NCBI RefSeq assembly: GCF_030362795.1
Contig: NZ_JAUCBM010000002.1
Location: forward strand, 186,001 to 250,000
Direction of reading: 5' to 3'
Source: Pseudochrobactrum kiredjianiae
Lineage (GTDB): Bacteria > Pseudomonadota > Alphaproteobacteria > Rhizobiales > Rhizobiaceae
Length of the DNA: 64,000 nucleotides
The first letter of the stretch is position 1, and each line of letters opens with the position of its first letter. The position numbers and the translations under genes were made by a program. Positions 4,269 to 64,000 of this stretch are shown here, in pieces. The notes beneath the pieces were generated by a model. It saw only the letters and a list, made by a program, of their open reading frames with translations. It ran no database searches and was not told the DNA's origin.

Positions 4269-7073
4269 TTAGTCTGTATAAGCATCCATTGGCGGGCAGG
4301 AGCAGACCAGATTGCGATCGCCGCCCACATTGTCGATGCGCGATACCGGAGCCCAATATTTGGAAGCCGGATCCATCGTCTTCGCAGGGAAGGCCGCTTC
4401 CTTACGGGTATACGGATGTTTCCAGTCATCGAGCATGGTGTCTGCAACGGTGTGCGGTGCATTTGCCAGCGGATTATCATCCTGCGGCCACTCACCGGCT
4501 TCAACCTTAGCCGCTTCCTTGGCAATTGAAATCATCGCGTCGCACAGACGGTCGATTTCAGCCTTGGATTCGGATTCAGTCGGTTCAACCATCAGTGTAC
4601 CAGCAACCGGCCATGACATGGTCGGTGCGTGGAAACCATAGTCGATCAAACGCTTGGCAACATCTTCAACGGTGACGCCAGCTTTGTCTTTCAACACGCG
4701 GGTATCAACGATGCATTCATGCGCAACGCGACTGTTCGCACCGGTATAAAGGATCGGATAATGATCCTTCAGGCGCTCAGCAATGTAGTTGGCATTGAGA
4801 ATGGCCACTTCCGTTGCATTTTTCAGACCGGCGCCACCCATCATACGGATATACATCCATGTGATAACGAGGATAGACGCACTGCCGAATGGTGCTGCGG
4901 AAACCGCATTGTCGCTGCCTGCATTCACATGACCCGGCAGGAATGGTGCCAGATGTGCACCGACACCGATTGGACCAATGCCCGGGCCGCCGCCGCCATG
5001 CGGAATGCAGAACGTTTTATGCAGGTTCATGTGGCAAACGTCAGCACCGATATCGGCCGGACGTGCCAGACCAACCAGCGCATTGAGGTTCGCACCGTCG
5101 AAGTAAACCTGACCGCCATTCGCGTGAATGATTGTGCAGATTTCACGGATGGTTTCTTCAAACACACCGTGGGTGGACGGGTAGGTGATCATCAGAGCTG
5201 ACAGCGTATCGCGATACTGTTCTGCCTTGGCTTTCAGATCAGCCACATCAATGTCACCGTCTTCGAGACAGTTGACGACAACCACTTTCATGCCTGCCAT
5301 CTGCGCACTGGCCGGATTGGTACCGTGTGCGGAAGACGGGATAAGGCAGATATTGCGGTTCTCATCGCCATTGGCGCGGTGATAGCGGCGGATTGCCAGA
5401 AGACCGGCATATTCGCCCTGACTACCGGCATTCGGCTGCAGGGATACAGCGTCAAAACCGGTCACTTCACAAAGCCATGCTTCGAGATTGTCGGTCAGAA
5501 CCTTGTAGCCTTCCAGATGCGCCTGAGGTGCAAAAGGATGCAGACCACCAACTGTCGGCCATGAGACCGGCATCATTTCAGCGGCAGCATTCAGCTTCAT
5601 GGTGCAGGAACCGAGCGGGATCATCGCACGGTCAAGCGCCAGATCCTTGTCTGCCAGCTTGCGCAGGAAACGCATCATTTCGGTTTCTGAACGATAGCTG
5701 TGGAATGCAGCCTGTGTCAGGAAATGCTCGTCACGTGGCGCATCCGGCAACAGACGGGCAGCTTTTTCAACAGGCTTCGCACCAAACAATGCAACCAGAG
5801 CCAGATAATCATCTTCCAGCGAGGTTTCATCAAAAGTGACAGACACAGTATCAGCATCAATGACGCGGATCAGGCGGTCGCCTGCCAGAGCCTTGTCAGC
5901 ATAATCCTGTGCTTTGCCTTTAACAGTTACAGTCACTGTATCAAACAGCTGCTCACCGGCCAGTTCATAACCGGCAGCTTTCAGCGAGGCTGCAAAGCGG
6001 GCAGTGATCGCATGAACGGCATCAGCAATAGCCTGCAGGCCTTTAGGACCGTGCCAGATTGCATAAGATGCAGCCATGTTGGCCAGCAGTGCCTGAGCGG
6101 TACAGATATTCGATGTCGCTTTGTCACGACGAATATGCTGTTCGCGGGTCTGCAGCGCCAGACGATAGGCTGGACGACCATGTGCATCGAGCGACTGACC
6201 AACGATACGACCCGGAATGATACGGGTGAGGTTTTCTTTCACGCCGAGATAAGCAGCGTGAGGACCACCATTGCCCATTGGCACGCCGTAGCGCTGCATC
6301 GAACCGACAGCAATATCGGCACCCCATGAGCCCGGAGACTGGGTGATGGTCAGTGCCAGAGGATCGGCAACGGCCACAACCAGAGCGCCGGTCTGTTTGG
6401 CGCTGGCGATAATACGGGTGAAATCACCGTAAACGCCGCGTGTATCCGGCCAAGGAATGATCACAGCAGCGGTTGTGGTATCCACTTCGCCGCCAACTTC
6501 AATGATCATGCCATGCGGTTCTGCACGGGTGTTCAAAACGTCCAGTGTCTGCGGGTGCAATTCACCGGCAATCACCATTTTCGGACGCTTTTCGCGGTGG
6601 TGGCGATAGGCAATGCCAACAGCTTCAGCAACAGCAGTTGCTTCATCCAGCAGCGATGCACAGGCAACCGGCAGGCCGGTCAGCTCTGTTACCAGTGTCT
6701 GGAAGTTGAACAGCAGCTCAAGGCGACCCTGACTGATTTCAGCCTGATACGGTGTATAGGCTGTGTACCATGCCGGATTTTCAAACAGGTTGCGCTGAAT
6801 GACCGGCGGCACATGGGTGCCGTGATAGCCCGCACCGTAGAAGCTTTTGGCGACCACGTTGCGACCCATGATGCCGGACAGTTCATTGAGAGCTGCGGCT
6901 TCATCGAGCGGAGCAGGCAGGTTGAGCGCGCGGTCAAGACGAATTGACTGCGGCACAGCCTGACTGATGAGCGTATCCAGTGACGGCAGACCAAGCGCCG
7001 ACAGCATTTCCTGCTGTTCACTGGCGCGAGGGCCGATATGGCGCTCTACAAAAGGAAGTGATGATGATGCCAT
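4269..7073 (-). CDS. gcvP: Glycine dehydrogenase (decarboxylating), P-protein
   Basis: A 934-residue full-length P-protein of the glycine cleavage system. It decarboxylates glycine with pyridoxal phosphate and passes the aminomethyl group to the lipoyl arm of GcvH. The N-terminus starts with the family-typical FVERHIGPR. The PLP lysine is K686 in NLHKTF, followed by a glycine-rich GGGGPG loop. It is the last gene of gcvT-gcvH-gcvP, 3 bases after gcvH, so translation is probably coupled. Two hairpins follow, the second with a T-run. Several long antisense frames within it are shadows. Expression is expected to follow the glycine riboswitch at the head of the operon. Confidence 0.98.
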
Positions 7074-7076
7074 GAT

Positions 7077-7445
7077 TTAGCCAACCAGTGCCTGATAACC
7101 GGCAGCGTCAAGCAGGCCTTCCAGCTGGCTTTCATCGGAGACTTTCATCTTCCACAACCAGCCTTCACCTTCTGCCGCGCTGTTAACGAGTGCAGGATTG
7201 CCATTGAGCTCTTCGTTGATTTCAATGACTTCACCGTTGAGCGGCGCATATACATCGGATGCAGCTTTAACGGACTCAACCACAACAATGGCTTCGCCTT
7301 TTTCAACAACGCGTTCAACTTCAGGCAATTCTACGAATACGAGATCGCCGAGCTGTTCCTGAGCGTGGTTGGTGATGCCGACAGTTGCAATGCCACCTTC
7401 AACGCTGAGCCATTCATGATCTTCGGTAAAAAAGATTTTAGGCAT
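7077..7445 (-). CDS. gcvH: Glycine cleavage system H protein
   Basis: A 122-residue lipoyl carrier that shuttles the methylamine intermediate between P-, T- and L-proteins. The lipoylation site is K60 in [16 protein letters not shown], the usual ESVKA context, with the conserved DHEW near the start. It sits 4 bases after gcvT and 3 before gcvP. The L-protein (dihydrolipoyl dehydrogenase) is not in the window and is normally supplied from elsewhere. Confidence 0.98.
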
Positions 7446-7449
7446 GCGA

Positions 7450-8565
7450 TTATCCTTTGTGATAGCGAGGTTGAGTAAATGGAAGTGTATGGACGTCTAC
7501 AGGCACTTTATTGCCGCGGACTTCCGCAAAAAGACGCGCGCCCGGTTCTTTCAGATCGGCTCTGACATAACCCATGGCAACAGGGAAACCGGCTGAAGGG
7601 CCGAAGCCGCCGGAAGTGATTTCACCGATTTCGCTGCCGGCTTCATCAAACAGCTTTGTACCGGCGCGAACCGGCTGACGGCCTTCCGGCTTGATGCCGA
7701 CGCGGCGCTTTTCAGGGCCATTGGCAATCAGTTCCAACACTTTAGCAGCGGCAGGGAAAGCGGCTGTTTCACGCACGGCTTTGGTGATTGCCCATGTCAA
7801 ACCGGCGGAAACCGGATCAATGCTCTCAGTAATGTCCTGACCATGCAGGCAGAGACCGGCTTCAAGACGCAAGCTATCGCGCGCAGCCAAGCCAATCCAT
7901 GCAACGCGGGCATCGCCCAGCAGCGCTTTTGCCAGAAACTGTGCATCGCCAAGCGGGGCAGCAATTTCAAAGCCGTCTTCACCGGTATAGCCGGAGCGGG
8001 TAACGAACCAGCCTTGTTTTGGCTCAAAACCGTGCATGAATTTCAGCTCATCAACGCTGAAACCGAGATCAGCAGCGAGGCTCTTCATCACATCCGCAGC
8101 CTGAGGGCCCTGAATGGCCAGCAAAACGCGGTCAAGCGGCGAAACAGTGCAGTTCAGTGCGCTTGCTGCTTTCTGGAAATGCGCAATATCAACATCTGCA
8201 TTACCGGCATTGGCGACAATCATGAAGCGCTCGTCACCCAGACGGGTTACGATCAGGTCATCAATGATACCTGCATCATCATTCATCAGGAATGTATATT
8301 TCGACTGGCCTTCATTGAGTTTGGTGACATCAATCGGGCACAGCTTTGCAAACAGCGCTGCGGCATCGCTGCCGGAAACTTCAATGAGTTTCATATGCGA
8401 GATGTCAAACAGACCAGCCTGTTCACGTGTATGAACATGCTCTTTCATCACGCCGAGCGGATAAGTCAGCGGCATGTTCCAACCGGCAAAACCGCCGAAG
8501 CGTGCGCCGGATGCGGTATGTAATTCTTCCAGCGGAAGCGTTTTTAAAGAAGTTGTATCGCCCAT
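7450..8565 (-). CDS. gcvT: Glycine cleavage system aminomethyltransferase, T-protein
   Basis: A 371-residue T-protein. It transfers the methylene group from the lipoyl-bound intermediate to tetrahydrofolate and releases ammonia. The N-terminal GCV_T fold ([12 protein letters not shown]) is followed by a C-terminal barrel ending near FTQPRYHKG, and the length is normal. TGGAG lies 8 bases before the ATG. It is the first gene of the operon, and its leader holds a tandem glycine riboswitch and a short hairpin between riboswitch and start codon. The three genes degrade glycine to CO2, ammonia and methylene-tetrahydrofolate. Confidence 0.97.
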
Positions 8566-8620: not shown

Positions 8621-8792
8621 CCCCTCTGTCGGAAGCCTGAGAGACTCGCAAGCCCGTAGAGACTTACTTACACCTTCGGCGCGGAGTTTCCCCCGACTTT
8701 CCAGAGTTGCCTTGCTGATCTGCGGTTCTTGGTACCTGAGAGATTTCGGGCGATTTCCCCTTCGGTGGCCGTTTCCGGCTCTCTCCCGCAGA
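8621..8792 (-). ncRNA. Tandem glycine riboswitch
   Basis: Read on the minus strand, the gcvT leader contains two glycine aptamers in a row. Aptamer 1 (about 8792-8720) shows GCGGGAGAG, the conserved CACCGAAGGGG and ATCTCTCAGGTACC. Aptamer 2 (about 8712-8621) shows CGCCGAAGGTG, a longer variable arm and GTCTCTCAGG, ending in GACAGAGGGG. The CCGAAGG and CTCTCAGG motifs in duplicate are diagnostic. Glycine binding is expected to turn on gcvTHP when glycine is abundant, as in the known family. Confidence 0.95.
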
Positions 8793-9176
8793 CAAACAGG
8801 AATCAGGACATTGTCCTCTCCTCGACATGCCTGCCTTTTATCGCAGCATGGAGGTGAAGTCATCTGGAATTATTTTAAGGGAGCACAGTTTGGTAGCGAT
8901 TGAATGTCGCGTCTTTTAAAAAGACGGTTTCAGCGGCGACACAGAATGCAAAATATAAGACGCCTGAGATTTTTCTGACGGAACTGATGCCGATAGGGAA
9001 ACTGTATGCAGCGGATTCGGGTGTTTTGTAAAAAAATGCTGCTTGGGTGTGGAGGTTTTGCACATTTCCACATGCAAAAAGCGCTGGGCTGAAAGAAATT
9101 ATCCCTTAAAAATCAAGGAAAACGGGGGTTTTTGAAAATAATTGGCTGCTCGCGCCATAATTTCTATTTTGGGTGC
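8793..9176. other. Non-coding gap upstream of the gcv leader
   Basis: About 380 bases separate the riboswitch from the tRNA promoter. The gcv promoter must lie at the left end on the minus strand, but no clear -35/-10 pair could be fixed. Nothing else supportable was seen; a short minus-strand frame (8875-9063) has no features of a real gene. Confidence 0.5.
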
Positions 9177-21395: not shown

Positions 21396-23468
21396 TCATT
21401 CTGCCACTTCAGGCAGAGGCCATGATTTTGCAACCATGGTCAGCACATCATATTGTGCAACAACGTCACCGCGCTGGTTGGTGACACAGCAATCCCAACG
21501 CACTTCGCCATGCTGTGCATTGAGGCGCGGATTGATCTCTTTACAGGTGAGGCGTACCTGCAATGTATCGCCGAAATAAACCGGCACGAGGAAGCGCAGA
21601 TTATCCACGCCGTAATTGGCCAGAACCGGCCCTGCATCCGGATGAACAAAAAGACCTGCCGCAAAACTTGCAATCAGATAGCCATGCGCCACACGGTCCT
21701 CAAAGAACGGATTGGCTTTCGCTGCTTCACTGTCCATATGAGCGTAGAAGGTATCACCGGTGAAATGAGCAAAATGCTCAACATCTTCCAGAGTGATGGT
21801 ACGCTTATCTGTAATCAGCTGATCGCCGATTTTAAGCTCTGCGAGCGATTTACGGAACGGATGCTCGTCCTGTTTTGCCGGTGCACCTTCAATCCAGCGG
21901 CCAGTAACAGCGGAAAGCAGTGTCGGTGAACCCTGAACGGCTGTACGCTGCATGAAATGTTTGACGCCGCGAATACCGCCCATTTCTTCGCCGCCACCTG
22001 CGCGACCCGGACCACCATGGATCAGACCGGCCAGAGGGGAGCCATGACCGGTTGAGGTCTTTGCGGTTTCACGGTTGCCGATCAGCACACGGCCATGCCA
22101 TGGCGCAACGCCAAGCACGGTTTTTTCTGCGGTTGCCGGATCATTGGTAAAGACCGAAGAGACCAGCGAGCCTTTACCTTTACGGGCAAGCGCAATGGCT
22201 TCATCCAGATCATCATAGGCCATAACAGTTGAGACAGGGCCGAAAGCTTCCACATCATGAATGGCTTCGGCCTCAAACGGTTTGTCTGCATAAAGCAAAA
22301 CCGGATTGAGGAATGCACCTTTTTCCGCATCGCCGGAGGCAATATTGATCACATCCGGATCACCGGCAACGATTTCAGCACCTTTCTGCAACGTGCGAAT
22401 ACGGTCACGGACTTCCACGCGCTGATCAAGGCTCGCCAATGCACCCATACGGATACCCTCATCCTGAGGCAGGCCGACCGCTGTTTTACCAAGACGTTCG
22501 CGCAGGGCAGCGATCAGAGCATCAACCTCAGAGCGAGGCGCAATCACACGGCGGATCGCTGTACATTTCTGACCGGCCTTAGAGGTCATTTCGCGGCAGG
22601 CTTCTTTGACAAACAGGTCAAACTCTTCTGTGCCTGCTTTGGCATCAGGAGCAAGAATTGCCGCATTGAGACTGTCTGCCTCCATGGTGAAGCGAACGGA
22701 ATTAGCAACAATAGCTGAATGGTTTTTCAGCATACGGCCGGTGCTGGCCGAGCCGGTGAATGTTACCACGTCCTGCTCTGTCACATGGTCGAGCAGATCG
22801 CCGACCGAGCCGCAGATCAGCTGCAATGCACCTTCCGGCAGAATGCCGGTTTCAATGATACGACGTACCATCAGTTCAGTCAGATAAGCGGTCTGGCTGG
22901 CCGGTTTGACAACACAAGGCACACCGGCAATCAGTGTCGGTGCGATTTTTTCCAGCATACCCCAGATCGGAAAGTTGTAGGCGTTGATATGCACTGCAAC
23001 GCCTTCCATAGGGGTGAGGATATGCTGACCGATAAAGCTGCCGTCACGGGAAAGTTGCTCAATATCACCTTCAGCCAGAACACGGGCATTCGGCAATTCG
23101 CGCCGTCCTTTGGACGAATAAGCGAGCATAGTGCCGATGCCGCCTTCAATATCGACCCAGCCGTCACTGCGGGTGGCACCGGTACGCAGGCTTTCCGTAT
23201 AGAATTCCTCTTTCTGTGCCATCAGCGCCAGACCCAGCTCTTTTAAAAGTTGGGCACGCTCATGAAAGGTCATATTCCGCAGTTTTGGGCCTGCAATTTT
23301 GCGGCCATAATCCAGCGTATCAGCGAAATTCACGCCTGTTGAATCAATAAGCGCTACCGGTTCACCGGTGGCTGCATCCAAAAGCGTCTGTCCTTGTTTG
23401 GTGCCGGCGACCCAGCTTCCATAGACATAGCTTTCAAGGCGGCGTGGTTGAACAGCCATATGGCTCAT
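21396..23468 (-). CDS. paaZ: Oxepin-CoA hydrolase / 3-oxo-5,6-dehydrosuberyl-CoA semialdehyde dehydrogenase
   Basis: About 690 residues from the ATG at 23468, preceded by GGAAGGAA. Residues 1 to about 520 form an aldehyde dehydrogenase with the catalytic cysteine in [10 protein letters not shown]. The last 150 residues form a MaoC-type R-hydratase domain ([27 protein letters not shown]) that hydrolyses the oxepin ring. This two-domain form is the true PaaZ. It lies at the end of the minus-strand epoxidase operon, 54 bases after the extra PaaA/PaaC-family gene. Confidence 0.96.
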
Positions 23469-23522
23469 TGCATTTCCTTCCAAATTCTTCATCGGGGGCA
23501 GGGCGCTATGGGATGGTCAATA

Positions 23523-24275
23523 TCAAAGACCAAGCGGGCTCAAAATCGTGCTACATTCACTCTGCCAGCGGCTGAGTAAGGCGCTGTTGGGGCTATGGCG
23601 CAGACCAAAACGCGCCAGAATTTCAAAACGACCGGATTGCGGATCGCCAAAACCGGCAGCAACACGCGGGCGCCAATAATCGATACTGGCTGCGGCTTCT
23701 TTCCGACCGGCATCTGTGCGGACAATGCTTGTTAGTCCTTCCAGACCAAGCTGCATATGGCGGGTTTCACGCGGTGCAATTTCACGGAAGACCTCGGCCA
23801 GCGGGGCGTAGGAAATGCGCGTAAACTCGGTCATCAAAATGCCGGTGGCAAGACCTTGCAGGACATTCATCACCACGGCATCTGTCCAGCTGATAATCGG
23901 GTAGTGAAACACCGAAACCCGCATATCACCTTCTTTACGGGTGGTGCCGAGGTCGCTGTCGCGCGGTGCACGTGCTGCCCAATCATATTGGGACTGGTAA
24001 CGGCGTTTATCGGTGCCGAAATCACCCATAATATTGAGAACACGCTCGGCATGATCGGCTTTTTCCAGCGTGATACGGCTGGCCGCAATACGCTCTTTAA
24101 TAGCGGGCGCGAAATTAATTGAGGATGCAAAACCCGCAGAGGCCGCCAGTTCACTGTCGACAAAGCTCGACATCATCCGCATCAGCTCGCCGCGATAGCG
24201 TGCAGGTACATTATTCGGAGCGGAGAGAACGCCGCCTTTTGCCAGATATTCTTCAATATTCATCATATCAGACAT
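23523..24275 (-). CDS. Additional PaaA/PaaC-family protein of unknown role
   Basis: 250 residues, recognised as phenylacetic-acid-catabolic (PaaA/PaaC, ferritin-like) family but neither the paaA nor the paaC of this operon, both present farther upstream. Candidate metal ligands can be seen: a glutamate in FVDSELAAS, glutamate and histidine in LEKADHAER, a glutamate in LMTEFTRIS and PRETRHMQLG. It could therefore be a third diiron-type subunit rather than a dead copy. It follows paaE by 11 bases with an AGGGGAAA ribosome binding site, so it is cotranscribed. The canonical epoxidase needs only PaaA, B, C and E plus PaaD. Its role is unknown: it could be an accessory or alternative oxygenase, or a regulatory subunit. 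Confidence 0.8.
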   Translation of the reverse strand: MSDMMNIEEYLAKGGVLSAPNNVPARYRGELMRMMSSFVDSELAASAGFASSINFAPAIKERIAASRITLEKADHAERVLNIMGDFGTDKRRYQSQYDWAARAPRDSDLGTTRKEGDMRVSVFHYPIISWTDAVVMNVLQGLATGILMTEFTRISYAPLAEVFREIAPRETRHMQLGLEGLTSIVRTDAGRKEAAASIDYWRPRVAAGFGDPQSGRFEILARFGLRHSPNSALLSRWQSECSTILSPLGL

Positions 24276-24286
24276 GGCATTTCCCC

Positions 24287-25363
24287 TTATTCATCATAGC
24301 TGACGACAACGCGGTCGCTCAGCACAGATGCCTGACAGGACAGGACGTAACCGGCGCGGACTTCGTAATCTTCCAGCGCGTGGTTGACGGCCATTTCGAC
24401 TTCGCCCTCGAGCACTTTACAGCGGCAGGTCGAGCAGACACCGGCTTTACAGGAGTAAGGTGCATCAAGATTGTTTGCGAGGGCAGCTTCCAGAATTGTC
24501 TGGCCGTTGCGTTCCATTGTAAAGCTGCGGGTCGTGCCATCCAGTGTCATCATGGCCTGCACACCGGCACCGGCTGTTGCGGCCTGTTTGGAAACAGGAC
24601 GCTGCTTGGCACGTCCTGGCTGACCGGAGGCGAAGAGTTCGAATTTGATCTGCTCGTCTTTCAAACCGTGTTCACGCAGGCTGGCGGCGATGCTCAGCAT
24701 CATCGGCTCGGGGCCGCAGATGAAAGCAGTGTCAATGGATGTCGGATCAATCCAGATACGGAACATATCCTTCAGCTTGGCTTCATCAATACGGCCTGTA
24801 AAAAGATCAATTTCCTGACCTTCCTGCTGCAGCACGTGAATGACAGAAAAACGGCCAAGATAGGTGTTTTTCAGGTCTTCCAGCACTTCGCGGAATATGA
24901 TTGAGCTGATCTGGCGATTAGCATAAATCAATGTGAAGCGGGATTTCGGCTCGCGTGCCAATGTGGTTTTGATGATCGATAGCAACGGGGTAATGCCGGA
25001 ACCGCCCGCAAAGCCCAGATATTGTTTTTCACCATCCGCTGTGATCGGCGTAAAGAAGCGCCCCATTGGCGACATGGCTTCAATTTCATCGCCAAGGCAC
25101 AGATTTTCATTCGCCCATGTGCTGAATGCACCACCGTCAACGCGTTTGATCCCGACCTGCAACAAGCCGTCATCCAGCCCCGCGCAGATGGAATAGCTGC
25201 GGCGCAGTTCTTCACCGTCGAATGCACGGCGGAAGGTCAGATACTGACCTTGTGTGAAGTTGAACTGTTCGCGGTCTTCATCCCGCGGGGTCAATGTCAG
25301 AACGACAGCATCGCGGGTATCGCGCTGAATATCGGTGACTTTAAGGGTATGAAAGCGTGCCAT
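24287..25363 (-). CDS. paaE: Phenylacetyl-CoA epoxidase reductase subunit PaaE
   Basis: 358 residues. The N-terminal ferredoxin-NADP reductase domain binds FAD and NAD(P)H. The C-terminal plant-type 2Fe-2S ferredoxin has CKAGVCSTCRC (cysteines at about 305, 310 and 313, and a fourth about 30 residues on). It feeds electrons to the PaaA diiron centre. It is separated from paaD by about 147 bases containing a dispersed palindromic repeat, an odd interruption inside this operon. Confidence 0.96.
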   Translation of the reverse strand: MARFHTLKVTDIQRDTRDAVVLTLTPRDEDREQFNFTQGQYLTFRRAFDGEELRRSYSICAGLDDGLLQVGIKRVDGGAFSTWANENLCLGDEIEAMSPMGRFFTPITADGEKQYLGFAGGSGITPLLSIIKTTLAREPKSRFTLIYANRQISSIIFREVLEDLKNTYLGRFSVIHVLQQEGQEIDLFTGRIDEAKLKDMFRIWIDPTSIDTAFICGPEPMMLSIAASLREHGLKDEQIKFELFASGQPGRAKQRPVSKQAATAGAGVQAMMTLDGTTRSFTMERNGQTILEAALANNLDAPYSCKAGVCSTCRCKVLEGEVEMAVNHALEDYEVRAGYVLSCQASVLSDRVVVSYDE

Positions 25364-25387
25364 TGGGTATCTTTCTTAAAACCGGCC

Positions 25388-25496
25388 TAGAGCATTTCAC
25401 AGTCAAGTTGGATCAACTTGGACAGTCTGGGATAATGCGACAAACAAAAGAATCTAGAGCGAGCACTGCGATTCAACATGAACGTAAACCGCTCTA
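25388..25496 (+). repeat. Dispersed palindromic repeat, copy B
   Basis: A complete copy: TAGAGCATTTC, first hairpin CCAAGTTGATCC-like (AAGTTGGATCAACTT), linker GGGATAATGCGACAAACAAA, then TCTAGAGCG ... CCGCTCTAGA. It lies between paaD and paaE within the epoxidase operon. Confidence 0.85.
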
Positions 25497-25510
25497 GAAC
25501 TGGCGCATCC

Positions 25511-26032
25511 TCAGATGCATTTGAAATAGTCAAAAGGCTCCAGACAATCTTTGCAGCGATAGCTGGCCTTACAGGGCGTCGATCCGAACTGGCTGATCTT
25601 TTCCGTATTGGCGGAGGAGCAGCGCGGACAGGTGATGGTTATATTGCCACCTGAAAGGCTGCGGGCACGGTCAAGCAGCACACCATTTGCGGCAGTACCG
25701 TCAACAGGCGGCGTAATGCCATAGACGCGCAGCTTTTCGCGGCCTTCTGCACTCAGCCAGTCAGTCGTCCATGCAGGAGAGAGCCTGCGTTCCAGACGGA
25801 GTTGTTCAATCCCTTTGGAGCGCAGTGCCGTTTCAATATCGAGATTGATGATGCTGGTGGCCGGACAACCGCTATAGGTCGGTGTAACCGTGACAACGAG
25901 CTCATCTTCCTGCCATGCAACATCACGGATGATGCCGAGATCAGTCAGGCTGATAACCGGGATTTCCGGATCGGGAACCTCGGCAAGCCAGCCCCAGATT
26001 TGATCGAGAGAGGGACGGGCAGTGTTCTCCAT
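25511..26032 (-). CDS. paaD: Phenylacetyl-CoA epoxidase maturation protein PaaD
   Basis: About 173 residues from the ATG at 26032. The N-terminal half is a MIP18/DUF59 domain (PDPEIPVISLTDLGI, TYSGCPATSII). The C-terminal half has paired cysteines (CPRCS, PCKASYRCKDC, KC at the end) that fit a metal or iron-sulfur site. PaaD is thought to help mature the iron centres of the epoxidase. It starts 5 bases after paaC; a GTG at 26074 is a possible longer start. Confidence 0.94.
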   Translation of the reverse strand: MENTARPSLDQIWGWLAEVPDPEIPVISLTDLGIIRDVAWQEDELVVTVTPTYSGCPATSIINLDIETALRSKGIEQLRLERRLSPAWTTDWLSAEGREKLRVYGITPPVDGTAANGVLLDRARSLSGGNITITCPRCSSANTEKISQFGSTPCKASYRCKDCLEPFDYFKCI

Positions 26033-26037
26033 GGCGA

Positions 26038-26886
26038 TTACCAGCTCGCACCGGGATAGGCGCGCTGCAACCACTGCAACTGTGTCAGCATATGCCCCAG
26101 ATGTTCGGTATGCATGCCCTGACGGCCGCCTTTATGGGCAAAGGTGCTGTCCGGAATATGCAGCGTCGCCTCATGAAGAACCGCACGGATTGTGCTTTCC
26201 CAGATCGGGCGTAACTCTGCCGGATCGGGTGCAATACCCTGTTCCGCTGCAGCCTTGTCGATCTCGTCAGACAGGAACATTTCGCCGGTATATGGCCACA
26301 AGGCATCCAGAGCCTTCTGCATACGGCGATGACTTTCGTCAGTACCGTCACCCAGACGAATGACCAGATCGGAGGAGCGCTCCAGATGATAAGCAACTTC
26401 CTTAGCAGATTTCTCTGCAATATCTGCAATGCGCTGATCAGACGATTTTTTCAGCGCTTTCATGAGTTCCAGATGAAAGGCGTCAAACAGGAACTGACGC
26501 ATCAGCGTATAGCCGAAATCATCATTCGGGCGTTCGGTGATGAGGAGATTTTTGAAATCCCAGGCGTCACGCAGGAAAGCCAGATCATCCGCCGAGCGGC
26601 CTTTGTCTTCCACTTCACCGGCAAGACCGAGCCAGAGCTGGGTCTGACCGATCAGGTCGAGGGACACATTGGCCAGCGCGATATCTTCTTCCAATGCAGG
26701 GGAATGCCCGCACCATTCGGACACGCGATGACCGAGGATCAGAGTATTATCACCAATACGGAGCAGGGTTTCAAAAGCCACATTACGTGTGCTCTTGTCT
26801 TCCGCAGGAGGACGCACATTGCGTACGATTTCTTCCTGTCTAGCGCGATCCAGTACCGGCGCTGTTTTACCGTGGGCAGCGCTCAT
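26038..26886 (-). CDS. paaC: Phenylacetyl-CoA epoxidase structural subunit PaaC
   Basis: 282 residues of the PaaA/PaaC fold. PaaC is the partner of PaaA in the epoxidase core and lacks a functional diiron site in studied examples. The sequence shows LILGHRVSEWCGHSP near residue 48 and LMRQFLFDAFHLEL in the core. The ATG at 26886 overlaps the paaB stop (TGATG); a GTG one codon earlier is also possible. It is the third gene of paaABCDE. Confidence 0.94.
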   Translation of the reverse strand: MSAAHGKTAPVLDRARQEEIVRNVRPPAEDKSTRNVAFETLLRIGDNTLILGHRVSEWCGHSPALEEDIALANVSLDLIGQTQLWLGLAGEVEDKGRSADDLAFLRDAWDFKNLLITERPNDDFGYTLMRQFLFDAFHLELMKALKKSSDQRIADIAEKSAKEVAYHLERSSDLVIRLGDGTDESHRRMQKALDALWPYTGEMFLSDEIDKAAAEQGIAPDPAELRPIWESTIRAVLHEATLHIPDSTFAHKGGRQGMHTEHLGHMLTQLQWLQRAYPGASW

Positions 26887-27170
26887 CACATGCTCCCTAC
26901 TTCTTCTGGAATGTCGAAGAATGTCGGATGACGATACACTTTGCTGTTGGAAGGTTCGAAAAGCGGGCCTTTTTCCGACGGGCTGGAGGCGACGATATCA
27001 TCCGAGCGTACCGCCCAGATGGAAACGCCTTCATTACGGCGGGTATAGACATCACGCGCATTATTGATCGCCATTGCAGCATCGGGTGCATGCAGGCTGC
27101 CGACATGACGATGGTTCAGCCCGTGCTGACCACGGATAAAGATCTCCCAGAGCGGCCATTCTTTGGACAT
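26886..27170 (-). CDS. paaB: Phenylacetyl-CoA epoxidase subunit PaaB
   Basis: 94 residues from the ATG at 27170 (the open frame extends farther upstream but has no family similarity there). EWPLWEIFIRGQHGLNHRHV and the following GSLHAPDAAMAINNARDVYTR are the PaaB signature. PaaB bridges PaaAC units in the epoxidase complex. It sits 26 bases after paaA and is coupled to paaC. Confidence 0.96.
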   Translation of the reverse strand: MSKEWPLWEIFIRGQHGLNHRHVGSLHAPDAAMAINNARDVYTRRNEGVSIWAVRSDDIVASSPSEKGPLFEPSNSKVYRHPTFFDIPEEVGSM

Positions 27171-27196
27171 GCTATTCTTCCTTATCTTGAGGGCTG

Positions 27197-28189
27197 TTAT
27201 TCGGCTGCAACGCGGGCAGAACGACTGGCAGCCTTGTCGGCATGCGCAACCAGTGCTTCGCGGAACCAGGCGCCATCGTCCCATGCTTTGACACGGGCGC
27301 CGAGGCGATCCGTATTGCAAGGGCCGTTACCACTGATGACATCGAAGAATTCAGTCCAGTCCGGCTCGGTAAAGTCGTAACCGCCTTTTTCTTCATTCCA
27401 TTTCAGATCAGGATCGGGAACTGTCAGACCAAGATATTCAGCCTGCGGAACTGTCTGATCGACAAATTTCTGACGCAGTTCGTCATTGGTATTCATCTTG
27501 ATCTTCCAGGCCATAGACTGGACAGAGTGCACGGAATCCTTGTCGGACGGGCCGAACATCATCAATGACGGATACCACATGCGGTTCAGCGCATCCTGAG
27601 CCATACGTTTTTGTGCAGGTGTGCCGGAAGCCATTTTCATCATCACGGCATAGCCCTGACGCTGGTGGAAGGATTCCTCTTTACAGATGCGGATCATCGC
27701 ACGGCTGTAAGGGCCGTAGGATGTACGCTGCAACGGCACCTGATTCATAATCGCCGCGCCGTCAACCAGCCAGCCAACCGCGCCCATATCGGCCCATGTC
27801 AGTGTCGGATAGTTGAAAATTGAGGAATATTTCATCCGGCCTTCGTGCAGGCGTTCAAGCAGATCATCGCGTGAGACGCCCAGAGTTTCAGCGGCAGAAT
27901 AGAGGTAGAGGCCGTGACCGGCTTCATCCTGAACCTTGGCAAGCAGGATCGCTTTGCGTTCCAGTGTCGGCGCGCGGGTGATCCAGTTGCCCTCAGGCAG
28001 CTGTCCGACAATTTCACTATGGGCATGCTGGCCGATCTGGCGGATCAGCGTCTTACGATAGCCGTCCGGCATCCATTCTTTCGGCTCGATCTTTTCACCG
28101 CGGTCGATACGCTCCTGAAAAGCGATTTCCTGCGGGCTCATCTCGGCGCGGTTTTTTGCACCTTCAGACGTTACAAGCTGTGCATACAT
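27197..28189 (-). CDS. paaA: Phenylacetyl-CoA epoxidase catalytic subunit PaaA
   Basis: A 330-residue diiron catalytic subunit that epoxidises the aromatic ring of phenylacetyl-CoA. The two ExxH motifs of the metal site are present in [17 protein letters not shown] and [14 protein letters not shown], and the length is normal. The ribosome binding site is GGAAAGGA upstream of the ATG. It is preceded by the thiolase gene with a 19-base gap, so paaJ-paaA-B-C-D-E-extra-paaZ probably form one transcript from the promoter near 29470. Confidence 0.97.
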
Positions 28190-28208
28190 AGCTGGCTGTC
28201 CTTTCCGG

Positions 28209-29414
28209 TCAGACGCGTTCGATAATCATGGCGATACCCTGACCAACACCGATGCACATTGTGCACAAGGCATAGCGGCCGCCGGTGCGATGCAGCTGAT
28301 ACATCGCTGTTGAGACCAAACGCGCACCGGACATGCCCAAAGGATGACCGATGGCGATGGCTCCGCCATTCGGGTTTACATGCTCAGCATCATCCGGCAG
28401 ACCCAGATCACGCAGTGTGGCTAATGCCTGACTGGCAAAAGCCTCATTCAGTTCAATCACATCCATCTGATCGATGGTCAGGCCGGCGCGCGCCAGAACT
28501 TTTTTGGCTGCGGGCGATGGGCCGATACCCATAATGCGCGGCTCAACACCAGCTGCGACCATGGCCACAATTCGCGCTTTTGGTGTCAGTCCTTGCGCTT
28601 TTGCGGCTTGTCCTGAAAGAATAGTCAGCGCTGCCGCACCGTCATTGACGCCGGAGGCATTGCCTGCGGTCACGGTCAGATCAACGCCGTTAATGGCTTT
28701 CAGTTTGGAGAGTGCATCTGCGGTCGTGCTTGGGCGGGGATGTTCGTCTTCGGCAAAGATTATCGGGTCGCCACGGCGGGGTGTAATTGTAACCGGAGCG
28801 ATCTCATCTTTAAAAAGGCCTGAAGCCTGTGCTTTTGCCCAGCGCGCCTGACTGCGTGCTGCAAATGCATCCTGATCTTCACGGGAGATATGAAAGTCAG
28901 CGGCCACATTGTCAGCGGTTTCCGGCATTGTATCGACGCCGAATTTTGCCTTCATCGCCGGATTGATAAAGCGCCAGCCGATGGTGGTGTCATAAACCGC
29001 ATTATTGCGAGAGAAGGCGCTGTCAGCTTTCGGCATCACAAAGGGCGCGCGTGTCATGCTCTCAACGCCGCCCGCGATAACGAAGTCGCAATCGCCGGAG
29101 CGGATAGCGCGTGCGGCCATGCCAATGGCATCCATACCGGAACCGCAAAGCCGGTTGACGGTGGTGCCGGGAACGCTGATCGGCAGACCTGCCAGCAACA
29201 CAGCCATACGGCCGACATTGCGGTTGTCTTCACCGGCCTGATTGGCGCAACCATAGATGAGATCATCAACGGCAGACCAGTCTACACCCGGATTTCTTTC
29301 AATGAGGGCTTTGAGAGGCAATGCTGCAAGGTCATCTGCACGTACCGAAGCTAATGCCCCGCCATACCGGCCAATTGGTGTACGTACTGCATCGCAGATA
29401 AAGGCATCTTGCAT
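28209..29414 (-). CDS. paaJ: 3-oxoadipyl-CoA / 3-oxo-5,6-dehydrosuberyl-CoA thiolase
   Basis: About 401 residues from the ATG at 29414 (AAAGGA upstream). The thiolase nucleophile cysteine lies in [11 protein letters not shown], the [11 protein letters not shown] motif is intact, and the C-terminal [10 protein letters not shown] holds the second active cysteine. In the island it performs the two thiolytic steps that release acetyl-CoA and finally succinyl-CoA. PcaF has the same fold and could share the name. It is the first gene of the long minus-strand catabolic operon. Confidence 0.94.
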
Positions 29415-29464
29415 TGCCTTGTCCTTTCCTACCCTGAGAAAGCCGAGTGAACTCCTCATTCATC

Positions 29465-29476
29465 GACCGCTTGGTC
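29465..29476. promoter_or_regulatory. Second PaaR-like site upstream of paaJ-paaA
   Basis: GACCGCTTGGTC is palindromic in its outer four bases each side and aligns with the paaN-paaG site (GACCG, three bases, GGTC, G). It lies about 50 bases upstream of the paaJ start, in the right place to repress the epoxidase operon. Confidence 0.55.
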
Positions 29477-29553
29477 AGGATTATACGGCCATTAAACATT
29501 ACAGCGCAAGTGATTTTTTAGAATTATTGTAATGTTTTGAGGTAAAACAAATT

Positions 29554-30396
29554 TTACCCTTGTTCTGACAAGGAAAGTCCGTGTTGACGGGCGGCCGTTT
29601 GCTGGGTTTTTGCGGGCAAGAGGCCATCCACACCTTCGCATTGTGAGGCAATCCACACCTCAGATTTAGGCGATAGTGCCTGATACAGACTGCGAAACAG
29701 ATCACGAGCATTGTGCCCCTGCCAGTCATCAGGCAGAGCCTCGGCTGGCAGACGCGGGTCGCGTAATAAGACGCTGCGATAGGCATGTACCAGCAAAAGT
29801 CGCGCCATCACCGCGTCTTCTGCGGAGAGCTGCGGGATTTTGCTATACAGCGGTTCAAACCGTGTCAGCAGATCACAATAGCGTTGATGCAGGATGGAGA
29901 GATCCCAGAACTGCGCAAGCCAGTTCATATCATCGGGATCAACAGCCCGCAAAAGCTGTGCGCCTTCCGGCAAAGCCTGTCCGCGATCCGGCCGGATAAA
30001 GACGGAAGACCCCATGCGTCCCATGCGCAGGCGCAAGGCTGCTGCATCAGGCAAGTCAGGGGCAAAAATGATTTGCCAGCCATTGATGACCGTATCGGGT
30101 TGATAAAGCAGTTTTGCTGCCTGATCGAATTCCTGCTGCGCAGAAGCATCAAGATTGTAATAGCTGCGCCGACCGTTGCGTTCGCCTTTCAGGCGCTGGG
30201 CGGTGACTAGGCGAGAAACAGCGGTTCTGACCACGGATTCACTCAAACCTGCGCGGTTACAAATTTCAATCAGCGAGCCTGTCCAGAGAATACCGCCTCG
30301 GGGCAGAACAATATCGCCGTAGACCGTGACGATGAAACCGGCAGCCCGCAATTCTTGTCCGTTCAGCAAGTCGGTGATGACAGTCTGTGCAACCAT
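29554..30396 (-). CDS. paaX: Phenylacetate operon repressor PaaX
   Basis: A 280-residue PaaX-family regulator with a winged-helix N-terminus (SLIEICNRAGLSESVVRTAV), a central domain and the C-terminal PaaX_C region. In E. coli and Pseudomonas PaaX represses paa genes and is released by phenylacetyl-CoA. It stands 139 bases upstream of the paaJ start on the same strand. No confident PaaX operator was found. It occurs with PaaR in the same island, which is unusual. Confidence 0.92.
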   Translation of the reverse strand: MVAQTVITDLLNGQELRAAGFIVTVYGDIVLPRGGILWTGSLIEICNRAGLSESVVRTAVSRLVTAQRLKGERNGRRSYYNLDASAQQEFDQAAKLLYQPDTVINGWQIIFAPDLPDAAALRLRMGRMGSSVFIRPDRGQALPEGAQLLRAVDPDDMNWLAQFWDLSILHQRYCDLLTRFEPLYSKIPQLSAEDAVMARLLLVHAYRSVLLRDPRLPAEALPDDWQGHNARDLFRSLYQALSPKSEVWIASQCEGVDGLLPAKTQQTAARQHGLSLSEQG

Positions 30397-31971: not shown

Positions 31972-32299
31972 GATGAAGCATGACGCGAATAAAGTCCTGT
32001 AATGCTGCCTTGGTTTGCTGGTCTCAGTTTCCCACTTTCTGGGATCAGTGAGGCAAAGTGTCAGTGTTTGGAAAGTAAGTTGACAGCGACCTGTATCATG
32101 GCGAAGATGCCGTAATAAGAGTTATATTGTGAAAATTTAAATATACTCTTATCCTTGTAGTATTTGATATTCATATCTGTACTATTTTATTAAAAATGAC
32201 AATGAATACAGATATTTATGAAACGTAAATATCTGAGCATACAGCATACGGGAATAACATGATTTAGAATATATTGAGTTTAAGTGGGAGGAATATTTT
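31972..32299. other. 328-bp gap between AraC-type gene and binding-protein gene
   Basis: AT-rich with no coding signs. It contains the inverted repeat 32209-32235 and a good GGGAGG ribosome binding site for the gene at 32300. Confidence 0.55.
32209..32235. promoter_or_regulatory. Perfect 10-bp-arm inverted repeat ahead of LIV-type binding protein
   Basis: CAGATATTTA and TAAATATCTG frame a 7-base spacer, 65 bases before the start codon. This is an operator or leader hairpin candidate for the orphan binding-protein gene. Confidence 0.5.
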
Positions 32300-33427
32300 A
32301 TGCGCTTGAAATTCTTGTCCGGTGTTGCAGTTGCAGCCGTTTTAGCCTGGACAGCAACCGCGCAGGCAGAGCTACTTATGGGTGTGGGAGCACCGATGAC
32401 CGGCCCGAATGCCACTTACGGGCAGCAGATTCTGAAGGGAGCAGAAGCTGCAATTGCTGAAATTAACGCCAATGGCGGTATTAACGGTGAACAGGTGAAA
32501 ATCGTCATTGGGGACGACGTTTCTGACCCGAAACAGGGGATTTCTGTTGCCAATAAATTCGCTGCGGATGGCGTAAAATTCGTCATCGGCCACTATAATT
32601 CCGGCGTGACTATTCCGGCATCAGATGTCTATGCCGAAAATGGCATCCTGATGATTAGCCCGGGTGCTACTAATCCAGCTTATACGGAAAAAGGTCTTTG
32701 GAATACGTTCCGTACCTGCGGACGTGATGACCAGCAGGGCATTGTTGCTGGTAATTACATCAACGATCATTTCAAAGATAAAAAAATCGCGGTCATTCAC
32801 GATAAGACCCCTTATGGTCAGGGACTAGCCGATGCCACCAAAAAGACCTTTAATGAACTCGGCGTGAAAGAGGTCATGTATGAAGGTGTGAACACCGGCG
32901 AGAAGGATTTCTCGGCACTGATTACCAAGGCCAAAGCGGCCGGTATTGATGTTCTCTATTGGGGCGGCGTGCATACTGAGGGCGGCTTGATTATCCGTCA
33001 GCTTGCAGATCAGGGGCTGAAGGTCACGTTCATTTCCGGTGATGCGATTGTTAACAACGAGCTGGCTTCTATTGCCCGTGATGCGGTTGTCGGTACGCTC
33101 AACACATTTGGACCAGATCCGCGTGTTGATCCGGCCAATGCCGAACTGGTGAAGAAGTTCCGCGACAGCGGTTTCGAACCGGAAGCCTATACACTTTATT
33201 CCTATGCGGCAGCACAGTCTTTGGCAGCAGCTGCCAAAGCTGCCGGTTCTAATGATCCGCAGGAAGTCGCCAAGGCGATGAAGGAAAAAGGTCCGTTCAA
33301 AACCGCTTTGGGTGATCTGGCTTTTGACGAAAAAGGCGATGCCAAATTGCCGGGTTATGTGATGTATGAGTGGAAGAAAATGCCGGATGGCAGTTTCACT
33401 TATGAACAGCAGAAGCAGGGTGGCTAA
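32300..33427 (+). CDS. LIV-type ABC transporter substrate-binding protein (orphan)
   Basis: A 375-residue periplasmic binding protein with a 24-residue signal peptide ending TAQAE. The mature start [19 protein letters not shown] is typical of Leu/Ile/Val-binding LivK/LivJ. No permease or ATPase is adjacent, so it probably docks onto a Liv importer elsewhere. It differs from the paa-linked binding protein and resembles true amino acid LivK more closely. A strong terminator follows. Confidence 0.9.
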
Positions 33428-63227: not shown

Positions 63228-63255
63228 AAAAAAAGCCGGACTATAAAGCCCGGCT
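63228..63255 (-). terminator. Terminator of the sRNA candidate
   Basis: AGCCGG and CCGGCT enclose a 10-base loop and run into TTTTTTT on the minus strand. It could also serve the DMT-family gene upstream on the same strand. Confidence 0.85.
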
Positions 63256-63331
63256 GAATTTAAGAAGGCATTAATATGCCTTCGAGGGGAACACTTGCAG
63301 CGCGAAATGGGAGGAAGCGCGCCAGCAAGTG
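63228..63331 (-). ncRNA. Candidate small RNA with anti-Shine-Dalgarno loop, AbcR-like
   Basis: Read on the minus strand, about 104 bases form three hairpins. Hairpin 1 is CACTTGC...GCAAGTG with an inner GCGCG/CGCGC stem, holding the loop CTTCCTCCCATTT, which is complementary to ribosome binding sites. After the single-stranded TTCCCCTC comes hairpin 2, GAAGGCAT/ATGCCTTC, and hairpin 3 is a rho-independent terminator AGCCGG...CCGGCT followed by seven T. A promoter CTTGAA-18-CATATG (63366-63337) places the RNA start at about 63331, right at hairpin 1. There is no protein frame. Two CU-rich target-pairing regions and three hairpins recall the alphaproteobacterial AbcR (alpha-r15) sRNAs that silence ABC transporter mRNAs; the family name is inference. 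Confidence 0.75.
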
Positions 63332-63336
63332 AGCTT

Positions 63337-63366
63337 CATATGGAGCAAGGTTCAAAGAAGTTCAAG
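63337..63366 (-). promoter_or_regulatory. Promoter of the sRNA candidate
   Basis: CTTGAA (63361-63366) and CATATG (63337-63342), 18 bases apart on the minus strand, upstream of the first hairpin. The -35 fits the CTTG-type alphaproteobacterial consensus. Confidence 0.5.
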
Positions 63367-63436
63367 ATGCCAAGCGTGTTTTTTTGACCAAAGCGTAAAA
63401 TAATTTAGGATAAACCTTGCTGATAACCGCAAATGT

Positions 63437-64000
63437 TTAGCCGCGCCTTGCCTGCATAATACCTGCAATAACCACGAGACCACCGCAAATCTGCCAGATG
63501 CTGAGTGGTTCGGACAGCAAAATCCATGCCAATATGGCTGCGACAACCGGCTGGATCAGTAAGGTGAGTGAAGAGAACGCAACAGGCAGCCATGCGATCG
63601 CGAATGTAATCAGGCTTTGTCCCGCAGCCTGTGTCATCCATGCCAGCGCACAGACAATGAACCAGCCAAACAGTGTGAGCGGGAAATATTGCGTTTCAAA
63701 AACCAGCGCCAGCGGCAAGATCGTCAGGGTCGCGCTGATTGTTGTGTAGAGCATAATTGTGGATGTGGAAAAACGGCGGCGTGTAAAGCCGAGCATCAGA
63801 ATATAGGCGGCATAGAGAACCGCCGCGCCAAGCGCGACAGCATCACCTTTGAGGCTGCTATGGCCGGAAAGATCAGGGCCGCCTTTCAGGATCAGCACGC
63901 CGACAATCGCCAGCGCCAAGCCGCTGACGAAAATTTTGCTGATCTTTTGTTTGAGAAACAGCCACCCACCCAAGGCGACAAAAATCGGTGACAGGTTCAC
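63437..64000 (-). CDS. DMT-superfamily (EamA) transporter, 5' end cut by window
   Basis: The last 187 residues or so of an EamA-type exporter; its true start lies beyond 64000. Hydrophobic segments repeat about every 25-30 residues and the second EamA repeat ends with PVVAAILAWILLSEPLSIWQ and GGLVVIAGIMQARRG, typical of the family. Substrates of such proteins range from amino acids to metabolites and cannot be told here. Confidence 0.85.
   Translation of the reverse strand: MNLSPIFVALGGWLFLKQKISKIFVSGLALAIVGVLILKGGPDLSGHSSLKGDAVALGAAVLYAAYILMLGFTRRRFSTSTIMLYTTISATLTILPLALVFETQYFPLTLFGWFIVCALAWMTQAAGQSLITFAIAWLPVAFSSLTLLIQPVVAAILAWILLSEPLSIWQICGGLVVIAGIMQARRG

What the first reader, a model, noticed from the sequence alone, without database searches (positions are those of the whole stretch)
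63228..63366. Unannotated trans-acting sRNA candidate with exposed anti-Shine-Dalgarno loop
On the minus strand, a promoter (CTTGAA-18-CATATG) leads directly into three hairpins and a strong terminator over about 104 bases with no coding frame. The first hairpin presents CTTCCTCCC and the next single-stranded part TTCCCCTC, both able to pair with GGGAGG-type ribosome binding sites. The window is rich in ABC transporter genes with such sites (the LIV-type binding protein at 32300 has GGGAGG, the liv binding protein at 16153 GGAGGAG, ugpB AGGGAG). That matches what is known of AbcR sRNAs in Agrobacterium, Sinorhizobium and Brucella. It could be an AbcR member or a relative with a new position.
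Basis: partly seen in the sequence, partly recalled or inferred. Interest (0 to 1): 0.75.

Follow-up and report, generated by a model that had tools for sequence, protein, structure and literature searches.

The report
AbcR-family regulatory RNA beside ugpB
This is a real small RNA gene of the known AbcR family, which shuts down nutrient-uptake genes; what is new is mainly its place in the genome and a promoter that looks stress-driven, matching a gene copy whose controller is still unknown in relatives.

Summary
Window 63228-63330 (minus) encodes a ~103-nt, three-hairpin, terminator-ended RNA (z = -7.2) that passes the Rfam ar15/AbcR threshold (44.2 bits, cut-off 40). It carries both published AbcR pairing motifs, CUCCCA in the first loop and GUUCCC between hairpins 1 and 2. 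The host is a Pseudochrobactrum with two AbcR genes: one at trxB-vtlR with the VtlR box, and this one between an EamA-type transporter gene and ugpB. Among the 80 best ugpB loci kept (of 580), 4 have AbcR beside ugpB, all Pseudochrobactrum. In Ochrobactrum sp. Q0168 and nine genomes of an unnamed genus (g17), the matching copy lies beside gcvP with the same promoter layout, TTGAA-N17-CATAT, without a VtlR box. Sinorhizobium meliloti abcR2, reported RpoH1-dependent, has that layout too. I infer a stress-sigma (RpoH) input for this copy, orthologous to Brucella AbcR1, whose regulator is reported unknown. The best predicted target in the window is the gene at 32300 (Atu2422-like GABA-binding protein), whose ribosome-binding site contains UGGGAG. 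The ugpB leader is not a special target. Known family; new position and a testable regulator hypothesis.

The parts
63228..63330 (-). AbcR (ar15) sRNA gene, about 103 nt
   Evidence: Rfam RF02345 44.2 bits, model 1-112 of 112; fold z -7.16; conserved in 9 of 9 Pseudochrobactrum sequences aligned
63338..63366 (-). promoter CTTGAA-N17-CCATAT (-35 63366-63361, -10 63343-63338)
   Evidence: one of 2 exact matches in the 4.46-Mb genome; both hexamers invariant in 9 of 9; same layout in the 10 gcvP-linked copies
63382..63398 (-). conserved upstream element TTACGCTTTGGTCAAAA, possible activator site, about 20 nt upstream of the -35 box
   Evidence: the only exact match of TTNCGNNNTSGTCAAAA in the genome, near matches no more frequent than the reversed control
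63292..63331 (-). stem-loop 1 presenting the first anti-SD motif
63308..63313 (-). motif M1 CUCCCA (aSD1) in the loop of SL1
   Evidence: sequence; motif defined in PMC5461406 (passages)
63287..63292 (-). motif M2 GUUCCC (aSD2) between SL1 and SL2
   Evidence: sequence; PMC5461406 passages, PMC8844928 passages
63264..63283 (-). stem-loop 2
63228..63255 (-). intrinsic terminator, stem 63255-63234 and T tail
63437..64000 (-). EamA/DMT-family transporter gene upstream (cut by window end)
   Evidence: PF00892; named in L032, L033
61604..62914 (-). ugpB, downstream neighbour; start codon about 313 nt beyond the sRNA end
32285..32290 (+). UGGGAG in the ribosome-binding site of the 32300 gene, complementary to M1: predicted target site
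32300..33427 (+). LIV-type/GABA-binding protein gene, best solved relatives 3ip5/3ipc (582.7 and 580 bits): predicted target

Best explanation
It is the second AbcR sRNA of a Pseudochrobactrum. Shown by sequence: a conserved promoter of its own, a three-hairpin RNA of about 103 nt, two exposed anti-Shine-Dalgarno motifs and an intrinsic terminator. Inferred: with Hfq, the motifs pair with ribosome-binding sites of transporter mRNAs, above all the Atu2422-like GABA/branched-chain amino acid binding protein at 32300 (UGGGAG against M1), blocking translation and exposing the mRNA to decay. Inferred: this copy is driven by a heat-shock-type sigma factor (RpoH), while the sibling at the vtlR locus is driven by VtlR, so one shared target set receives a stress input and a VtlR input. 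It is orthologous to the gcvP-linked copy of the Ochrobactrum/Brucella group (Brucella AbcR1).
For: Rfam ar15 above threshold. Fold z -7.16. M1 and M2 exact (PMC5461406). SL1 encloses M1 with at least 6 pairs in 117 of 117 distinct copies, with several pair types at every stem position (copies were chosen by motif and many are close relatives). Two copies in own genome and in each of the 7 genus genomes, own included. Hfq gene present; one RpoH gene over the family cut-off and a second RpoH-like gene below it. Copy A has GCAT-N3-TG-N3-T in 7 of 7. Copy B has [CG]TTGAA-N17-[CA]CATAT in 17 of 17 sequences of Pseudochrobactrum (7), g17 (9) and Q0168 (1). S. meliloti abcR2 has ATTGAA-N17-CCATAT, reported RpoH1-dependent (PMC8844928 passages). 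The 32300 leader pairs best of 55 (-23.8 kcal/mol; 0.33% of 3000 random stretches as strong). TGGGAG lies 3-19 nt before the start in 19 of 23 leaders of its homologues against 4 of 169 leaders of other loci, one of the 4 being the 32300 gene itself, and in 2 of 55 window genes, both LIV-type binding proteins.
Against: No expression data. CTTGAA-N17-CCATAT also fits the alphaproteobacterial sigma-70 consensus quoted in PMC8844928 (CTTGAC-N17-CTATAT) at 10 of 12, so the sigma assignment is not settled. The putative groESL promoter of the genus reads CTTGAC-N16-CCTATAT in 6 of 6 loci, not this form. In 9 of the 10 gcvP-linked copies the first base of the -35 is G, not C. Of 117 copies, 7 have both promoter features and 15 neither. 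M2 is mostly unpaired (5 of 6 or more) in only 38 of 112 copies folded. The leaders of the 32300 family are related, and their starts were picked by a rule that favours SD-like sequence, so 19 of 23 is not 19 independent events. ABC genes as a class do not pair better (p = 0.40). Brucella itself was not examined, so the AbcR1 orthology rests on published orientation and replicon. One paper states that VtlR regulates AbcR1 in B. abortus (PMC8844928), against AbcR2 in PMC7486931 and PMC9751625.
Confidence: 0.8

Rival explanations
1. An AbcR sRNA as above, but transcribed by the housekeeping sigma-70, with the conserved upstream TGGTCAAAA element binding an unidentified activator.
For: 10 of 12 match to CTTGAC-N17-CTATAT (consensus in PMC8844928). 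The upstream block TTTTACG...TGGTCAAAA is kept in 7 of 7 Pseudochrobactrum genomes and the TSGTCAAAA core in 8 of 10 gcvP-linked copies.
Against: The -35 TTGAA and the CCATAT -10 at N17 are those of S. meliloti abcR2, reported RpoH1-dependent. Near matches of the upstream element in the genome are no more frequent than the control (27 against 32).
Confidence: 0.35
2. The RNA is a processed 3'UTR of the upstream DMT-transporter mRNA rather than an independent gene.
For: Same strand, beginning about 105 nt after the DMT stop codon.
Against: Its own promoter block is conserved and accompanies the RNA in a different neighbourhood (gcvP/efeU) in other genera.
Confidence: 0.05
3. The element acts in cis on ugpB, as a leader or attenuator.
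For: It lies upstream of ugpB on the same strand.
Against: A strong terminator ends it about 313 nt before the ugpB start codon. 76 of the 80 ugpB loci kept show no AbcR beside ugpB. The ugpB leader pairs no better than random stretches.
Confidence: 0.03

Closest known systems
Brucella abortus AbcR1/AbcR2 (PMC5461406, PMC9751625, PMC4211561; passages read)
   Same: M1 CUCCCA in SL1 loop, M2 GUUCCC between SL1 and SL2; two distal copies; one copy under VtlR
   Different: Second copy sits between a DMT transporter gene and ugpB, 55 kb from gcvTHP; in the Ochrobactrum-type genomes it is next to gcvP. Brucella sequence itself not examined here
Sinorhizobium meliloti AbcR2 (PMC8844928, passages read; L244)
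   Same: TTGAA-N17-CCATAT promoter without a VtlR box; two aSD motifs; three hairpins
   Different: Tandem with abcR1 beside lsrB; RNA body groups with another lineage (one clade of the 10 RpoH-type copies tested rejected, p-AU 0.00017)
Agrobacterium tumefaciens AbcR1 (PMC7486931, passages read)
   Same: Same family, anti-SD motifs, target class including the Atu2422-type GABA-binding protein (PMC4211561 passages)
   Different: AbcR1 there is VtlR-activated and tandem; this copy lacks the VtlR box
NfeR1 of S. meliloti (named in PMC8844928 passages)
   Same: Anti-SD sRNA acting on ABC binding-protein mRNAs
   Different: Described as 115 nt with three identical aSD motifs; not compared by sequence here

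Membership tests
AbcR / ar15 (RF02345) | Covariance-model score above the curated threshold | tested here: met
   44.2 bits, cut-off 40, full model 1-112
AbcR / ar15 (RF02345) | M1 CUCCCA unpaired in the loop of the first hairpin | tested here: met
   in 109 of 112 distinct copies folded at least 5 of 6 bases are unpaired
AbcR / ar15 (RF02345) | M2 GUUCCC single-stranded between hairpins 1 and 2 | tested here: met
   all but its first G unpaired in the window RNA. Across copies at least 5 of 6 unpaired in only 38 of 112; the folds include untranscribed promoter bases, which may explain part of it
AbcR / ar15 (RF02345) | Three hairpins, the last an intrinsic terminator | tested here: met
AbcR / ar15 (RF02345) | Multiple sibling copies per genome in Brucellaceae/Rhizobiaceae (PMC3712013 passage) | tested here: met
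   2 in own genome, 2 in each of 7 genus genomes
AbcR / ar15 (RF02345) | Represses ABC-transporter binding-protein mRNAs by pairing at the SD | tested here: inconclusive
   Strong predicted site at 32285-32290; no class-wide enrichment
AbcR / ar15 (RF02345) | Expressed and Hfq-bound | not testable with these tools
   Hfq gene present only
VtlR/LsrB-activated AbcR | GCAT-N3-TG-N3-T upstream of the promoter | tested here: not met
   Absent in the window copy (L002); present in the sibling copy 7 of 7
RpoH1-dependent AbcR (S. meliloti abcR2 type) | CTTGAA-N15..17 and an RpoH-type -10, no VtlR box | tested here: inconclusive
   CTTGAA-N17-CCATAT matches the S. meliloti abcR2 layout but also sigma-70 at 10 of 12
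RpoH1-dependent AbcR (S. meliloti abcR2 type) | Transcription lost without RpoH | not testable with these tools
   -

The most novel reading that the evidence does not exclude
A stress-sigma-driven AbcR copy has arisen or been rebuilt independently in at least two lineages (Sinorhizobium/Shinella, and Brucella-Ochrobactrum-Pseudochrobactrum). In each case a VtlR/LsrB-driven and an RpoH-driven gene then feed one shared target set, and in Brucellaceae the stress copy moves as a self-contained promoter-plus-RNA cassette to new sites. Brucella AbcR1, whose regulator is reported unknown, would be RpoH-dependent.
Probability: 0.4. Interest if true: 0.55.

Novelty: new member of a known kind. Interest (0 to 1): 0.35.

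Why it matters
The family is well known, so the gene itself is not a surprise. It matters because a 2022 review (PMC9751625, passages read) lists the regulator of Brucella abcR1 as an open question, and the promoter shared by the copies that I take as its orthologues points to one testable answer, RpoH. It also suggests crossed names: by promoter and locus, Brucella AbcR2 corresponds to rhizobial AbcR1 (VtlR/LsrB), and Brucella AbcR1 to rhizobial AbcR2. The RNA bodies nevertheless group by lineage rather than by promoter type.

Tried and rejected
Tried without result. (1) Upstream element TTNCGNNNTSGTCAAAA as a regulon marker: 1 exact match and 26 one-mismatch matches in the genome against 32 for the reversed control, so no regulon. 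(2) RNAalifold consensus on a mixed alignment of 36 copies (A4) gave only 10 pairs, probably because the variable hairpins were misaligned; I folded copies singly instead. (3) An earlier alignment (A3) and the first vtlR-copy alignment (A2) held minus-strand loci unturned; both were discarded and redone. (4) A regular expression for the RpoH-like promoter was wrong and found only one copy (L014); corrected. (5) The pattern CTTGAA-N17-CCATAT with up to one mismatch gives 28 genome sites against 9 control sites, but I did not assign genes to them. (6) A first tree of 32 rows had long branches; 6 rows (L009_A, L009_B, L014_B, L024_A, L030_A, Phyllo_B) were dropped for the tested tree of 26. The groups tested were named after seeing the first tree, and Rhiz_G035_B was left out of the 'all B' group (10 rows).

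Considered and rejected: ugpB as the adjacent target (average pairing); cis-acting leader; 3'UTR product.

Counts to read with care. One search searched these 80 by a motif pattern: 4 have AbcR beside ugpB (L054, L055, L056, L131). Two other pattern hits (L097, L105) lie downstream of or inside ugpB and are not AbcR-like. Some loci (for example L077, L094, L109) hold little upstream DNA. One search examined 394 genomes of a larger family (305 with a match, 289 over the cut-off) and listed only part of the matches. In one search, 10 of 10 g17/Q0168 copies have gcvP beside them and 9 of 10 also efeU (L227 shows none within its 2-kb flank). The strict VtlR box is in 8 of 10 of their sibling copies. 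Gene starts were chosen by a simple SD rule. The 55 window genes were all scanned with Pfam (50, the last 5, none of these 5 an ABC gene). One search counted only ATG starts. The 23 leaders come from 14 of the 20 loci that laid out of 44 matches.

Papers: passages only of PMC5461406, PMC7486931, PMC8844928, PMC9751625, PMC4211561, PMC12772402, PMC4843759, PMC4167512, PMC3712013, PMC3927594, PMC3747064; all others search listing only. That 3ip5/3ipc are Atu2422 is recalled, not printed.

Full report
What is there. On the minus strand, 63366-63228 holds CTTGAA-N17-CCATAT followed by an RNA of about 103 nt ending in a GC-rich hairpin that runs into 7 T. Its fold is -46.1 kcal/mol, three hairpins, z -7.16. 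Rfam ar15 matches over the full model with 44.2 bits against a threshold of 40. The first loop holds CUCCCA and the linker GUUCCC, the M1 and M2 motifs defined by mutagenesis in Brucella abortus (PMC5461406, passages) and overlapping the aSD1/aSD2 motifs of S. meliloti (PMC8844928, passages). A simple sigma-70 consensus scan lists no minus-strand promoter here.

Host and copies. The flanking DNA matches four Pseudochrobactrum records of plasmid class, 433-464 kb, two of which I inspected. The own genome has two AbcR genes, as has each of the 7 genus genomes, own included. Copy A follows trxB and a LysR gene (vtlR) and precedes a permease and an aspartate aminotransferase gene; it carries the VtlR/LsrB box GCAT-N3-TG-N3-T in 7 of 7. 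The window copy (B) lies between a DMT transporter gene and ugpB in 7 of 7 genomes and both plasmid records inspected.

Position. Of the best 80 ugpB loci kept from 580 found in genome contigs, 4 have AbcR beside ugpB, all in the Pseudochrobactrum group; Ochrobactrum sp. Q0168 is among the 76 without. In Q0168 and in nine genomes of genus g17, copy A keeps its place beside the aminotransferase gene (10 of 10). Copy B lies convergent to gcvP with efeU beyond it (10 of 10 gcvP, 9 of 10 efeU). In G300, an assembly of 3 contigs, copy A is on a 2.31-Mb contig and copy B on a 1.56-Mb contig. This matches the published B. abortus arrangement: AbcR2 on chromosome 1 and VtlR-activated, AbcR1 on chromosome 2 with flanks drawn '-> <- ->' (PMC4211561, PMC9751625; passages). 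In the window, gcvTHP (4269-8565) has no AbcR beside it. So the copy and gcvTHP are still on one contig but 55 kb apart.

Promoter. Copy B of Pseudochrobactrum and of g17/Q0168 shares [CG]TTGAA-N17-[CA]CATAT in 17 of 17 sequences, although the neighbourhoods differ. An upstream TSGTCAAAA is kept in 7 of 7 Pseudochrobactrum genomes and 8 of 10 others. S. meliloti abcR2 reads ATTGAA-N17-CCATAT and is reported RpoH1-dependent (PMC8844928). Over 117 distinct AbcR copies in the loci I fetched, 72 have a relaxed VtlR box only, 23 an RpoH-like promoter only, 7 both and 15 neither. These are related sequences, so the split is descriptive. The sigma assignment remains an inference: the sequence also fits sigma-70 at 10 of 12, and the putative groESL promoter of the genus, read by eye, is CTTGAC-N16-CCTATAT in 6 of 6 groES loci (7 genomes searched, one incomplete genome without a hit). 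The own genome has one RpoH gene over the family cut-off and one RpoH-like gene below it.

Descent. In a tree of 26 RNA genes, Rhizobiaceae copies A and B group together, apart from the Brucellaceae-side copies A and B (100/100). One clade of the 10 RpoH-type copies tested is rejected (p-AU 0.00017). One clade of Pseudochrobactrum B with g17 B is not rejected (p-AU 0.44). The groups were named after a first tree, 6 long-branched or related rows were dropped, and the alignment is short. Either the second, stress-promoter copy arose independently, or the RNA bodies were homogenised within lineages.

Targets. The leader of the 32300 gene pairs with the M1 loop at -23.8 kcal/mol, the best of 55 leaders in the window; 0.33% of 3000 random stretches do as well. 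Its protein's best solved relatives are 3ip5/3ipc at 582.7 and 580 bits, which I recall as Atu2422, the A. tumefaciens GABA-binding protein controlled by AbcR1 (PMC4211561 passages). Homologues and paralogues of this protein in 13 searched genomes gave 23 distinct leaders from 14 loci, of which 19 contain TGGGAG, the exact complement of M1, 3-19 nt before the start. Among leaders of my other loci it is in 4 of 169, one of which is the 32300 gene. Among the 55 window genes it is in 2, the 32300 gene and the second LIV-type gene (start 16153, -16.2 kcal/mol, rank 7); ugpB pairs at -12.7, rank 30, as 49% of random stretches do. ABC genes as a class are not enriched (18 against 37, p = 0.40). The five binding-protein genes are (p = 0.025), but not without the 32300 gene (p = 0.083).

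Mechanism. Shown: RNA architecture, exposed motifs, conservation, complementary SD. From the literature on relatives (passages): Hfq-stabilised AbcR RNAs pair at SDs of transporter mRNAs and lower their translation and stability. Inferred here: the same action, and a stress input for this copy.

Print. Searches for Pseudochrobactrum with sRNA (4 papers), abcR1 with RpoH and Brucella (3 papers) and AbcR with Ochrobactrum and sRNA (2 papers) listed nothing that, from the listings and the passages I read, describes this locus or assigns RpoH to Brucella abcR1. The library holds open-licence papers only, and the Rhizobiales AbcR review (10.1111/mmi.13869) was not held. PMC8844928 compared PabcR2 with predicted homologues in several alphaproteobacteria in a supplementary figure that I could not see, so part of the promoter comparison may already be in print.

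Verdict. A real, ordinary member of a known sRNA family, in a new genomic position, with a useful regulator hypothesis.

Noticed in passing
L054 (JAHREI010000003.1) and G001:C3: A contig titled Bacillus subtilis strain SK6B4 is a Pseudochrobactrum sequence (UgpB 98% identical, same AbcR locus); the record title looks mislabelled.
   Followed up: partly
window 8713-8798 (-) and 4269-8565: Glycine riboswitch upstream of a gcvTHP operon; a second aptamer-like stretch follows it, suggesting a tandem riboswitch.
   Followed up: no
L041, L042 (G007, G010): AbcR-like genes at the vtlR locus with an altered first loop (CUCCCGGC) scoring 41.4 and 29.6 bits: the Rfam threshold misses some divergent members.
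   Followed up: no
L244 (CP090106.1): A 3.72-Mb S. meliloti record named pSymB carries the lsrB-abcR1-abcR2-arsR locus described as chromosomal in strain Rm1021; replicon name probably swapped.
   Followed up: no
L225 (Phyllobacterium pellucidum, G421:C7): Second AbcR copy with CTTGAA-N17-CTATTT in yet another neighbourhood; no gcvP, ugpB or vtlR match within the 8 kb fetched.
   Followed up: partly
window 21396-30396: A phenylacetate degradation (paa) cluster with a PaaX regulator, by Pfam.
   Followed up: no
G020, G393, G350: Some relatives carry up to six AbcR matches per genome.
   Followed up: no
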